Part shown: in pieces, positions 2,033-47,562 of the stretch
Layout: each line of letters starts with the position of its first letter
Position numbering within the stretch: position 1 is the first letter of the stretch
Position numbers and translations under genes: made by a program
The notes under the pieces: model-generated
What the model was told of the DNA's origin: nothing
Databases searched by the model: none
Seen by the model: only the letters and a program-made list of their open reading frames with translations
Assembly: GCF_032341995.1 (NCBI RefSeq)
Contig: NZ_CP135439.1
Span: forward strand, 434,001 to 498,000
Direction: 5' to 3'
Source: Domibacillus sp. DTU_2020_1001157_1_SI_ALB_TIR_016
Lineage (GTDB): Bacteria > Bacillota > Bacilli > Bacillales > Domibacillaceae
Length of the DNA stretch: 64,000 nucleotides

Positions 2033-2063
2033 AGAGGGCGTCTTTAAGACAGCCCTCTTTTTT
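2033..2063 (+). terminator. Rho-independent terminator
   Basis: The stem AGAGGGC / GCCCTCT is followed by a run of T directly after the stop of the preceding gene. It ends the helicase operon and sits immediately before the first periodic GGCCGG element. Confidence 0.85.
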
Positions 2064-2065
2064 AT

Positions 2066-2171
2066 GGCCGGAAAATAGCACGTACGGCCGGAAAAAATGG
2101 ATTAGGGCCGGATTATTGTCCGTAATGGCCGGAAAAACGAGAATCCGGCCATCCAGCAAGCTTTTCCGGCC
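2066..2171. repeat. Periodic GGCCGG/CCGGCC intergenic element, copy A
   Basis: Forward cores GGCCGG start at 2066, 2086, 2106 and 2127, with steps of 20, 20 and 21 bp. Inverted cores CCGGCC follow at 2145 and 2166, a step of 21 bp. The centre, from last forward to first inverted core, is 18 bp. Forward cores are mostly followed by A-rich sequence and inverted cores are preceded by T- or A-rich sequence. The copy lies between convergent genes, after a terminator. Copies B and C share the plan. Function unknown. Confidence 0.85.
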
Positions 2172-3201: not shown

Positions 3202-3349
3202 TTTATTCCCTCCATTCTTTTTTATCCTATTCTATAAAACTATACCTCGTTCCATAAATTTGTAAAACTCATCCAGTTCGTAAAGTAGGGAAATTCTACT
3301 TATTTTTTTAATCCTTTATTTAATTTTAAAAAAATCCGCCGATAAACCT

Positions 3350-3433
3350 GGTAGGGTACAGCCGTAGAAATGCGGTGCCACAAAGCTATAGGGGCTAAAG
3401 CAATTTGCCAGGCCAGCCAGCTGCCATGCCCTA
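3350..3433 (+). promoter_or_regulatory. Cyclic di-GMP-I (GEMM-I) riboswitch 1
   Basis: The conserved GEMM-I core is present: CAAAGCTATAGGGGCTAA around 3380-3398, the tetraloop-receptor hairpin arm and the GCCAGCCAGCTGCC arm around 3412-3424. TAGGGTA (about 3351-3357) can pair with TGCCCTA near the 3' end as P1. The SD AGGAGG lies about 10 nt downstream and no T-run terminator intervenes, so translational control of the SLH-Ig gene is more likely than termination. That expression mode is inference. Confidence 0.9.
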
Positions 3434-14618: not shown

Positions 14619-14690
14619 TACTTGTGAGTAACAAGAATGCGTGTTTGGTCACTGGTCTTGCTAAGGTCATGTCTCCCATACCTTTATCAA

Positions 14691-14782
14691 TGGAGGCACT
14701 CGGCCGCGCGGTGGTGTTCCGGGAAACGGAACGCTTAGACGCCTGTCGTCAAGCGCGTGGCGTGAGGGCGGGTTAAATGCCC
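14691..14782 (+). ncRNA. EAR (eps-associated, epsC-leader) antitermination RNA
   Basis: The position, between the kinase/phosphatase genes and epsC, is that of the known Bacillales EAR element. The sequence folds strongly: GTTCC...GGAAC and CGCTT...AAGCG with an inner GAC...GTC, an outer CTCGGCCGCG / CGCGTGGCGTGAG helix, and a closing GGGC...GCCC hairpin. An intrinsic terminator follows within 30 nt. EAR is known to let polymerase read through such terminators in eps operons. Assignment is from memory of the family and position. Confidence 0.75.
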
Positions 14783-14808
14783 AATCTTTTTATAGATATA
14801 TAGAAAAA

Positions 14809-38996: not shown

Positions 38997-39017
38997 AAAG
39001 ACACTACGAACATTGTG

Positions 39018-39096
39018 CGAAAAGGCAAAATCGTTGAAAAGCGATGACGCAAAACTATAGGGGCTAAAGGGGATCTATGCCAGCCAGTTGTCGAAT
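39018..39096 (+). promoter_or_regulatory. Cyclic di-GMP-I riboswitch 2
   Basis: AATCG...CGAT hairpin, then GACGCAAAACTATAGGGGC (one A-for-G change from the usual CAAAGCTA), then GCCAGCCAGTTGTC. It shares AAAAGGCAAA at its 5' end with riboswitch 3. About 35 nt later comes the strong SD of a 42-codon gene. No terminator lies between, so translational control is likely. Confidence 0.85.
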
Positions 39097-43981: not shown

Positions 43982-44087
43982 GGCCGGAATCTTTTATTTT
44001 GGGCCGGTATATCGGGCGTTTAGGCCGGAAAATACTTTTTCCGGCCCAGGCGAAGCAGATTCCGGCCCAAATGTAACAATTCCGGCC
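43982..44087. repeat. Periodic GGCCGG/CCGGCC intergenic element, copy B
   Basis: Forward cores start at 43982, 44002 and 44023 (steps 20, 21). Inverted cores start at 44041, 44062 and 44082 (steps 21, 20). The centre step is 18 bp. The copy is thus a symmetrical 3+3 array between the stop of a plus-strand gene and a bidirectional terminator. Confidence 0.88.
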
Positions 44088-44106: not shown

Positions 44107-44145
44107 AAAAAAACGGGCTTATCCAACTGGATAAGCCCGTTTTTT
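44107..44145. terminator. Bidirectional terminator
   Basis: AAACGGGCTTATCC / GGATAAGCCCGTTT with T-runs on both sides, serving 41617-43971 (+) and the ABC permease gene (-). Confidence 0.9.
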
Positions 44146-46224: not shown

Positions 46225-46267
46225 CGTTTGTTGGAGACTATTATACTAGTAAGTGGGGGAAGTTGTT

Positions 46268-47176
46268 TTGAAGAAATATCATGTACTGGCTGCTGTGCTG
46301 TTGTTTTTCACACTTGCAGCAGTGTTCAGCAATACAGCCAAAGCAGCCGAGCCGATGCCGGCAAAAGTCGTCGCTCCTTCTTTATCGGTACGGGAAAATG
46401 CAAGTCCGCGTGCGAAAGTGATCGGGTCACTGGCCAGGTATACTGCGCTATCTGTTTACGGGCAGGCGCCGGGCGGATGGTCGGAGATCCGGTTTCAAAA
46501 CCGCAGGGCATACGTCCCGTCCAGCCAGCTGAAAACGGCAAAATCGACGATCGTGGTTACGTTTGGCGACAGTAATACGCAGGGAACGAACTGGAAGCAG
46601 AATCCATCTTATCCGCAGGCGGCAAAATGGGCCGTAAAGCTCGGACAGACATATACCGTTGTGAATTCCGGTATTGGAGGCGATACATCCGTCATGGGAC
46701 GCGACCGTTTTCAGCAGGATGTGTTAAACAAGCAACCGGATGTGGTTACCATTATGTTCGGGACAAATGATGCCGTGATCCGGTCTAATGGGCAGGCGCG
46801 TGTTTCTAAAGCAAAGTTTGAGCAGAATATCCGCTACTTTACCGACACGCTCAAAGCGAAAAAAATTAGGGTTGTACTGATGACCACACCGCCTGTTATT
46901 CAAGGGCTGTTTTATAGCCGTTATGACGAAAAACTGTACAAAAAGTACAGTGGCGCCCGGCTGTGGAATGATTCTTACAATGCGATCATCCGTAAGGTGG
47001 CCAGGGAAGAAAGGGTAACGTTGATCGACAACTATCAAAATATGAATCTGGCAGCCGGCGGCGCGACCGATCAGAAGTTGATCCTATCGGGATTAATCGA
47101 CTCTTCGGGCACGCATTTAACGCCAAGAGGCGCTGACATGATTTATCAGTCTGTCAATCGGGTGTTAAGCCGTTAA
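46268..47176 (+). CDS. Exported SH3b-SGNH/GDSL hydrolase
   Basis: 302 residues from TTG 46268 after GGGGGAA. The signal peptide ends near TAKAAE. An SH3b wall-binding domain spans about 35-92 (APSLSVRENASPRAKVIGS, GWSEIRFQNRRAYVP). The SGNH domain covers about 95-302 with all blocks intact: TFGDSNTQG, GIGGDTS, MFGTNDAV and the catalytic D-x-x-H in DSSGTHLTPRG. It is likely an esterase acting on acylated wall or exopolysaccharide. It contrasts with the SGNH-fold protein at 36027-36857, which lacks the Asp-His pair. Confidence 0.9.
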   Translation: MKKYHVLAAVLLFFTLAAVFSNTAKAAEPMPAKVVAPSLSVRENASPRAKVIGSLARYTALSVYGQAPGGWSEIRFQNRRAYVPSSQLKTAKSTIVVTFGDSNTQGTNWKQNPSYPQAAKWAVKLGQTYTVVNSGIGGDTSVMGRDRFQQDVLNKQPDVVTIMFGTNDAVIRSNGQARVSKAKFEQNIRYFTDTLKAKKIRVVLMTTPPVIQGLFYSRYDEKLYKKYSGARLWNDSYNAIIRKVAREERVTLIDNYQNMNLAAGGATDQKLILSGLIDSSGTHLTPRGADMIYQSVNRVLSR

Positions 47177-47232
47177 AAAAGGGAGTGTCTCTAAGCCGGG
47201 AAACTGGCTGATGAGACAGTCCTTCTTTTTAT
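47177..47232 (+). terminator. Terminator after the SH3b-SGNH gene
   Basis: A bulged AAGGGAGTGTCTC / GAGACAGTCCTTC stem with T5. It runs straight into repeat copy C. Confidence 0.65.
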
Positions 47233-47359
47233 GACCGGAAAACAGCACGCAACGGCCGGATTTTTATACGGAATGGCCGGAAAAAGCTGATTATGGCCGA
47301 AAAAAAGAGAATCCGGCCCGGCCGTAGCACTTTCCGGCCCTGATTCTTATTTTTTGGCC
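47233..47359. repeat. Periodic GGCCGG/CCGGCC intergenic element, copy C
   Basis: Forward cores start at 47233 (GACCGG), 47254, 47275 and 47295 (GGCCGA), with steps 21, 21, 20. Inverted cores start at 47313, 47334 and 47354 (degenerate TTGGCC), with steps 21 and 20. The centre step is again 18 bp. The first unit and the unit before the centre are very close in sequence to those of copy A. It lies between a terminator and the riboswitch-controlled protease gene. Confidence 0.87.
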
Positions 47360-47483
47360 CAAAAAGAACTAAGCCTTAACTTATAGTTATATTTTCATGT
47401 GAATGCAAAAAAAGATAGAAAATGAGCTTAAGTTCGGTGAAAATCTTCCGATATAAAAATAGGCAGTTAGACTGCTTTAATAT

Positions 47484-47562
47484 GAAAAGGCAAATCTGTG
47501 GAAATGCAGAGACGCAAAGCTATAGGGGCTAAGCCGTTTTGGTATGCCAGCCAGCTACCAGG
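47484..47562 (+). promoter_or_regulatory. Cyclic di-GMP-I riboswitch 3
   Basis: GACGCAAAGCTATAGGGGC, flanked by CTGTGGAAATGCAG (P2) and GCCAGCCAGCTACC, is a textbook GEMM-I aptamer. The 3' end abuts the SD GGGAGG (47561-47566), which favours control of translation of the protease gene. Confidence 0.92.

What the first reader, a model, noticed from the sequence alone, without database searches (positions are those of the whole stretch)
47233..47359. Intergenic element built from GGCCGG cores at strict 20-21-bp steps that invert at a constant 18-bp centre (copy C, best preserved)
Seven cores lie at 47233, 47254, 47275, 47295 | 47313, 47334, 47354. The steps are 21, 21, 20, then 18, then 21, 20. 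The first four read GGCCGG plus mostly A-rich sequence, the last three the inverse. Two other copies in the window have the same geometry, including the 18-bp centre. A step close to two DNA turns suggests a filament or array of protein dimers on one face of the helix. Alternatively the RNA would form nested helices, each core pairing with its mirror core. I know of no named Bacillales repeat with this plan, but I could not search.
Basis: seen in the sequence. Interest (0 to 1): 0.82.

Follow-up and report, generated by a model that had tools for sequence, protein, structure and literature searches.

The report
Phased mirror-image DNA arrays in Domibacillus
Between genes of the bacterium Domibacillus lie short mirror-image rows of a GC-rich DNA word repeated about every 20.5 base pairs, two turns of the double helix; some relatives keep the spacing at the same places but use a different word, which suggests docking rows for an unknown DNA-binding protein.

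Summary
The array is real and belongs to an apparently undescribed repeat family of the genus Domibacillus. The window holds three copies (2066-2171, 43982-44087, 47233-47359) and the genome about ten. Each is a mirror pair of arms of a unit [G/A]GCCGGAWW. Counted at GGCC, the lattice runs unbroken through the centre at 20.50 ± 0.04 bp, so the "18-bp centre" is an indexing effect. Copy C is the most worn of the three; copy B is best preserved. Between orthologs cores change about five times less than spacers (3.1% against 16.2%), and arrays gain or lose whole units. They follow gene ends (24 convergent, 12 tandem, 0 divergent of 36).

In this strain all ten lie near the replication origin, as do many in two relatives, but in another species they are dispersed. 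At two orthologous loci the spacing stays while the core differs on both arms (GGCCGG, CGCCGGTA or CGCCGA, GGGCGG, GGTCGA, GGCGCA). Selected RNA pairing of spacers is not supported by ortholog changes, though some copies fold well.

Best reading: a phased docking array for an unknown DNA-binding protein with a chromosome-structure role. No protein was identified. Rivals: a hairpin or terminator element, or a REP-like repeat without host function. Gyrase fits poorly.

The parts
2066..2171 (.). Copy A: four GGCCGG cores (2066, 2086, 2106, 2127) and two CCGGCC cores (2145, 2166); between convergent genes
   Evidence: the sibling strain lacks one left 20-bp unit and has one extra right unit
2034..2063 (+). 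Hairpin with T-run (terminator-like) just before copy A, read by eye
   Evidence: not returned by the mechanical scan
43982..44087 (.). Copy B: three GGCCGG (43982, 44002, 44023) and three CCGGCC (44041, 44062, 44082), all exact; best preserved copy; between convergent genes
   Evidence: nested fold z -8.55
44113..44140 (.). Bidirectional terminator-like hairpin beside copy B, read by eye
   Evidence: not returned by the mechanical scan
47233..47359 (.). Copy C (the finding): seven lattice positions, four exact cores, three worn
   Evidence: in the sibling strain the first core reads GGCCGG but three units are missing
47206..47231 (+). Terminator-like stem-loop with T-rich tail before copy C
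   Evidence: stem 47206-47221
46253..47176 (+). GDSL lipase-like gene before copy C
   Evidence: Pfam
47479..47562 (+). c-di-GMP-I riboswitch after copy C, leading a subtilase gene (likely start 47576 by eye, end 49468)
   Evidence: Rfam; Pfam

Best explanation
Each element is a mirror-symmetric docking array for a DNA-binding protein that has not been identified. One subunit or dimer would read each core (GGCCGG, then A, then two A/T pairs, perhaps in the minor groove). Cores two helical turns apart put all subunits on one face, so that they can join into a filament or wrap the DNA. Arms point towards a central dyad. Because arrays lie behind gene ends and were never found between divergent genes, the role is probably chromosome structure (anchoring, condensation, domain or supercoil control) and not promoter control. 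Shown: geometry, slow-evolving cores, gene-end location, core differences at orthologous loci. Inferred: the protein, its cooperative binding, and the role.
For: Period 20.497 +/- 0.043 bp in 27 elements with at least 6 cores. 190 of 195 steps are 20 or 21, 95 each (the walker looked only at 18-23). Without that limit, of 126 successive GCCGGA pairs no more than 45 bp apart 84 are 20/21 bp apart and 25 are 40/41. Adjacent steps alternate 20/21 in 112 of 157 cases, against a shuffle mean of 74.9 and maximum of 97. The lattice passes through the dyad. Ortholog substitutions over pairwise comparisons at 9 loci (pairs not independent): core 18/576, AWW 25/288, spacer 187/1152. +6 is A or T in all and +7 in 99% of 140 units. 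Whole units come and go. 0 divergent of 36 placed elements, by mechanical ORF calls. Orthologous loci carry different cores with the lattice kept. In G002, 26 matches to CGCCGGTA-N10-15-CGCCG, 24 of them at 20/21 steps, reversed control 2.
Against: No protein was found. G010 carries a GGCGCA array at one locus while its five other elements seen are GGCCGG, and G003 has both GGTCGA and GGGCGG arrays, so one reader with one taste does not explain all. Part of the alternation and uniformity may be descent, or unit duplication (two identical neighbouring units in L206). Origin-proximal clustering holds in G000 and for many arrays of G061 and G008 but not in G002. Some copies fold as strong hairpins, and L113 is an almost perfect palindrome. 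A few steps do change (3-bp loss in L205).
Confidence: 0.48

Rival explanations
1. A hairpin element: the transcribed 3' region folds into a rod of nested GC helices and acts as a terminator, mRNA 3' shield or bidirectional insulator between genes.
For: Copy B fold z -8.55, A -3.63, C -2.29. Bases -4 to -2 outside cores pair with the mirror arm 89/177 against 0.38 expected, and 184/513 = 0.36 for non-mirror levels. Core-fixed spacer shuffles give mean fold z -0.72 +/- 0.30 (about -0.5 without L113, by hand). Of spacer changes at paired positions 21 of 39 kept pairing, against 54 of 123 in slid controls. Cores differ on both arms together. Orthologous loci in G001 and G002 hold plain hairpins with T-rich tails (by eye).
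Against: Ortholog spacer changes: 3 compensatory nested (two of them the same change) against 13 in four slid controls; paired spacer positions change at 14.1%, unpaired at 17.5%. First core base: 8 G/T and 7 A/C against 1 A/T beside 43 G/C, so almost no compensation. Inner A/T positions hardly complementary beyond composition (0.67 against 0.62, p 0.04; 0.11 without L113). Arms are unequal. No terminator-like hit inside copies A-C. Pairing does not need all levels to share one core, nor a 20.5-bp lattice. G006 copies show no excess.
Confidence: 0.24
2. A REP/BIME-like dispersed repeat without host function, spread by an unknown mobilising enzyme and kept uniform by unit slippage, template switching and gene conversion; core types are subfamilies.
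For: Location behind genes; at least 14 copies in G006 with somewhat similar spacers (7 of 91 pairs above 60%; mean 0.36, against 0.31 in G000 and 0.25 for shuffles). G003 carries two very similar arrays 1.1 kb apart. Unit gain and loss. Different core types within one genome (G010, G003).
Against: Loci are shared between species, so many arrays are old and vertical. Cores change 5 times less than spacers at shared loci. The two places where G000 lacks a sibling array are deletions that leave an array remnant, not empty insertion sites. No linked mobiliser was seen; two Y1 transposase matches lie elsewhere in the genome.
Confidence: 0.2
3. A strong wrapping site for a topoisomerase or general nucleoid protein (gyrase-like), read by bendability and not by sequence.
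For: Dyad symmetry, GC/AT phasing over up to 166 bp, gene-end location, and different cores at one locus. The E. coli gyrase motif is a symmetric 130-bp GC-phased pattern (passages of PMC6379681).
Against: The gyrase motif has a 10.75-bp period; here it is 20.50 +/- 0.04 = 2 x 10.25. The turn between cores is not GC-enriched above genome level. A shape reader would not need one 6-mer with five of its six positions at 96-99% and the first at 86% (140 units).
Confidence: 0.08

Closest known systems
REP/BIME elements of enterobacteria (recalled; BIME-gyrase link read in PMC6379681 passages)
   Same: Extragenic, behind gene ends, palindromic, dispersed; the E. coli REP outer stem GCCGGAT..ATCCGGC (recalled) resembles the unit
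   Different: Here several cores per arm sit on a fixed 20.5-bp lattice; unit number varies; the core differs between species while the lattice stays; no linked RAYT seen
RacA ram sites of B. subtilis (PMC6593407 passages: centromere-like, dense near the origin but spread along the chromosome)
   Same: Origin-proximal in G000 and largely in G061 and G008; several motif copies per site (recalled for ram)
   Different: No RacA identified; ram sequence differs (recalled); arrays are dispersed in G002; no 20.5-bp lattice known to me for ram
Plasmid iterons and other phased operator arrays (recalled)
   Same: Direct repeats about two helical turns apart, cooperative binding
   Different: Chromosomal, mirrored around a dyad, at many loci, not at an origin
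Strong gyrase sites (PMC6379681 passages)
   Same: Symmetric, GC/AT-phased, of similar length
   Different: Period 10.25 not 10.75 bp; a defined core word
Intrinsic terminators
   Same: Same intergenic positions; orthologous loci may hold a hairpin with T-rich tail instead
   Different: No T-run at the core stems of copies A-C; several copies lie beside a separate terminator-like hairpin

Membership tests
REP/BIME | Extragenic, at gene 3' ends | tested here: met
   24 convergent, 12 tandem, 0 divergent of 36
REP/BIME | Single 35-40 nt palindromes or pairs of them, without a fixed multi-core lattice (recalled) | tested here: not met
   3-9 cores at 20/21 bp
REP/BIME | Associated RAYT (Y1) transposase flanked by the repeats | tested here: inconclusive
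   Two Y1_Tnp matches in the genome, each with an internal TAG, not beside arrays; typing as RAYT not done
RacA ram sites | Clustered around the origin | tested here: inconclusive
   Met in G000; 7 of 11 array loci of G061 and 3 of 5 of G008 share the dnaA contig; not met in G002
RacA ram sites | RacA present | tested here: inconclusive
   15 MerR_1 matches; 2 of 15 scanned with NCBIfam, no RacA model hit; no RacA query was used
Gyrase strong site | 10.75-bp GC phasing | tested here: not met
   20.50 +/- 0.04 per two turns
Gyrase strong site | Dyad symmetry over about 130 bp | tested here: met
   lengths vary with unit number
Intrinsic terminator | GC stem followed directly by a T-run | tested here: not met
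   No scan hit inside copies A-C; other copies not scanned
Catalogued RNA family | Rfam match at gathering score | tested here: not met
   4 matches in the window, none over an array
Structured RNA element | Compensatory change in helices | tested here: inconclusive
   Spacers: none above control. Cores: both arms differ together between species
CRISPR array | cas genes and repeats of 20+ bp | not tested
   Cores of 6-8 bp and mirrored arms make it implausible; no cas search done

The most novel reading that the evidence does not exclude
A new class of bacterial chromosome-organising element defined by geometry: a mirror-symmetric 20.5-bp docking lattice whose core word and unknown reader protein co-evolve quickly, so that related species carry the same sites in the same places written in a different word.
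Probability: 0.3. Interest if true: 0.88.

Novelty: new variant of a known kind. Interest (0 to 1): 0.66.

Why it matters
If these are protein docking lattices, a set of about ten to twenty chromosomal sites has changed its recognition word between close species while keeping helical phase and, at the loci compared, position. That would be a tractable bacterial case of fast DNA-protein co-evolution, like centromeres. A single pull-down could name the protein. If they are repeats without host function, the strict 20.5-bp phase still needs an explanation.

Tried and rejected
RNA-pairing tests were run three ways. A first signal at offsets -1, +5 and +6 came partly from mixing GGCC- and CGCC-type species; after separating them it vanished at -1 and shrank at the inner A/T positions, while the -4 to -2 signal remained.

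The idea that copies are recent insertions: the two places where G000 lacks a sibling array (L210, L211) keep an array remnant, so they are deletions.

Gyrase was attractive until the period was compared.

A single reader with one fixed specificity was weakened by G010 and G003.

The idea that arrays mark the origin region in general was dropped after G002.

RacA candidates: two MerR-type proteins gave no RacA hit.

Other taxa: the strict three-core pattern in genome contigs gave 86 stretches, 80 of them listed. I printed 16, 12 of them non-Domibacillus, and ran the lattice scan on the 65 non-Domibacillus loci: 13 gave a hit of five or more cores. The five of these 13 that I read (L119, L146, L163, L167, L176) are tandem repeats or GC-rich DNA, not AT-spaced mirror arrays; the other eight were not read. 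Viral contigs gave 0 for the strict pattern.

Rows dropped before counts: from the walker's elements, three false positives (single hits judged coding) were removed, leaving 49; 11 orthologs from G061 and G008 were then removed, leaving 38. These 38 still include cross-species orthologs (G010, G008), so they are not all independent. One search placed 36 of 38; two lack a callable neighbour on one side. Elements below four exact cores in the scanned stretch (for example in L102 and L208) were never counted.

Full report
WHAT IS THERE. The finding is real. Copy C reads GACCGG, GGCCGG, GGCCGG, GGCCGA, then CCGGCC, CCGGCC, TTGGCC at the stated positions and steps. Copies A (2066-2171) and B (43982-44087) have the same plan. 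Copy C is the most worn; B has six exact cores. A scan that assumes no core word finds exactly these three in the window and none in three shuffles.

THE LATTICE. Each unit is [G/A]GCCGGAWW followed by a variable stretch (140 units of 21 elements). Counted from GGCC to GGCC the steps are 20 and 21, mostly in alternation, and the centre is itself 20 or 21 (22 and 16 of 38), so the lattice crosses the dyad without a break; only the word's direction flips. In 38 elements, 190 of 195 steps are 20 or 21, 95 each (the walker looked at 18-23 only). In 27 elements with at least six cores the slope is 20.497 ± 0.043 bp. Up to a distance of 45 bp, 84 of 126 successive GCCGGA pairs are 20/21 bp apart and 25 are 40/41. 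Adjacent steps alternate in 112 of 157 cases, against 74.9 expected and at most 97 in 5000 shuffles; shared descent may add to this. Other step lengths give 0-3 hits against 63 (the 63 include repeats of one element, and scans with a shifted centre still gave 23 and 37).

WHICH ORGANISM, HOW MANY. The strict pattern in genome contigs names Domibacillus species among others. One relative, G061, has a contig of the same length (409,954) as one of D. indicus MSL 225.1.2, and G061 is labelled the same species as the window's genome G000, so I take G000 as Domibacillus. G000 has nine elements by the three-core pattern plus copy C. Outside the genus the pattern gives 0-3 matches per genome (49 genomes). 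Inside it, arrays are clear in G000, G006, G008, G010 and G011 and, with another core, in G002 and G005; the seven matches of G001 look like background.

WHERE. In G000 dnaA lies at C2:84 kb. C2 starts with an rRNA operon (Rfam) and then lysS, and ends with mcsB-clpC-radA-..-ispD-ispF. This is the order lysS-rrn-ctsR-mcsB-clpC of B. subtilis (recalled), so C2 very probably closes on itself; no overlap proves it. The ten elements then lie 108-397 kb on one side and 172-211 kb on the other side of dnaA, within about 608 kb of a 5.10-Mb genome. In G061, 7 of 11 array loci share the dnaA contig (112-354 kb away); in G008, 3 of 5 (116-322 kb). In G002, however, CGCCGGTA matches lie on nine contigs, at about 21 places after merging near neighbours and leaving out one match of another length that G000, G061 and G008 share almost letter for letter, so the clustering is not a family rule. 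Of 36 elements with two callable neighbours, 24 lie between convergent genes, 12 between tandem genes and none between divergent genes (mechanical ORF calls). Several lie next to a terminator-like hairpin (read by eye); one fills the gap between two stop codons (271-kb locus).

HOW IT EVOLVES. Between strains, orthologous arrays gain or lose whole units. At shared loci core substitutions are 18/576, AWW 25/288 and spacers 187/1152 over pairwise comparisons that are not independent. L206 carries two identical neighbouring units, so units duplicate. Two arrays of G061 are lost in G000 by deletions that leave a remnant.

THE CORE CHANGES, THE LATTICE STAYS. Behind the HAD-type gene at 271 kb, G000, G061, G008 and G010 have GGCCGGA; G003 has GGTCGA with steps 21, 21, 20, 21; G005 has CGCCGA/CCGGCG; G002 and G001 have plain hairpins; five genomes lack the gene at the cut-off used. 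Behind the 6-phosphogluconate dehydrogenase gene at 409 kb, G061, G008, G011 and G006 have GGCCGGA (G000 keeps a remnant); G002 and G005 CGCCGGTA; G001 and G003 GGGCGG; G010 GGCGCA, with steps 21, 21, 21 and 21, 21 but a centre half a step longer; G004, G009 and G007 none, G007 being only 77% alike and perhaps a paralog. G003 has a second GGTCGA array elsewhere. It was the only match among 13 genomes, but the reversed control matched nine times, so that count alone proves nothing. In G002, 24 of 26 matches to CGCCGGTA-N10-15-CGCCG are at 20/21 steps.

RNA OR DNA. For pairing: copy B folds at z -8.55, A -3.63, C -2.29; bases -4 to -2 outside cores pair with the mirror arm 89/177 against 0.38 expected; real arrays fold somewhat better than core-fixed spacer shuffles (z -0.72 ± 0.30, L113 alone -8.4); of spacer changes at paired positions 21 of 39 kept pairing, against 54 of 123 in slid controls; both arms differ in core together. 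Against: no compensatory excess in ortholog spacers (3, two of them one change, against 13 in four controls); core mismatches G/T 8 and A/C 7 against one A/T; W positions hardly mirror-complementary (0.67 against 0.62, p 0.04; p 0.11 without L113); arms unequal; no reason for a 20.5-bp lattice in RNA. I judge the DNA reading better, the hairpin reading open.

MECHANISM. Most likely a protein reads each core, and neighbours two turns apart join on one face into a filament or wrap. That the lattice outlasts the word argues that contact between proteins across two turns is the essential feature. Gene-end position points to chromosome structure. The protein is unknown; two MerR-type candidates gave no RacA hit. 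Gyrase is a poor fit: its motif has a 10.75-bp period (passages of PMC6379681) against 10.25 here.

KNOWN OR NEW. No Rfam family covers the arrays in the window. Literature searches for Domibacillus (15 of 77 papers listed), REP-type terms (listing) and intergenic palindromic repeats in Bacillus/Firmicutes (10 of 30 listed) showed no description in what was listed; the library lacks most subscription papers. RacA ram sites were seen in passages of PMC6593407. RefZ papers were seen as listing only. REP sequence, ram sequence, iterons and B. subtilis gene order are recalled.

Noticed in passing
G000:C1 and C2 ends (L217-L220): Both contigs start with an rRNA operon in the same orientation; gene order suggests C2 (3.39 Mb) closes on itself, so C1 (1.71 Mb, with its own rRNA operon) may be a second large replicon.
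   Followed up: partly
window 3345-3428, 39014-39095, 47479-47562: Three c-di-GMP-I riboswitches in one 64-kb window; the third precedes a subtilase gene right after copy C.
   Followed up: no
window 14664-14783: epsC RNA (RF01735), ahead of a long run of + strand ORFs.
   Followed up: no
L113 4001-4064 (G000:C2:3303 kb): This array is an almost perfect palindrome, spacers included; the sibling copy (L209) has lost part of the match. May be a fresh template-switch product.
   Followed up: partly
L255 2977-3082 and 4116-4221 (G003): Two arrays 1.1 kb apart are very similar in spacers, as if one had copied the other.
   Followed up: partly
L148, L149, L165, L168, L182, L194 (Prevotella sp. RGIG9172 MAG): Several GGCCGGAAT/ATTCCGGCC elements, most with a third core 21 bp away and TTTT/AAAA flanks; perhaps an unrelated repeat with similar spacing.
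   Followed up: partly
G000:C2:2813462-2813824 (L214): Y1 transposase domain with an internal TAG; not near any array.
   Followed up: no
L251 (G010, 409-kb locus): GGCGCA array whose centre is 29 bp instead of 18, about one helical turn longer.
   Followed up: partly
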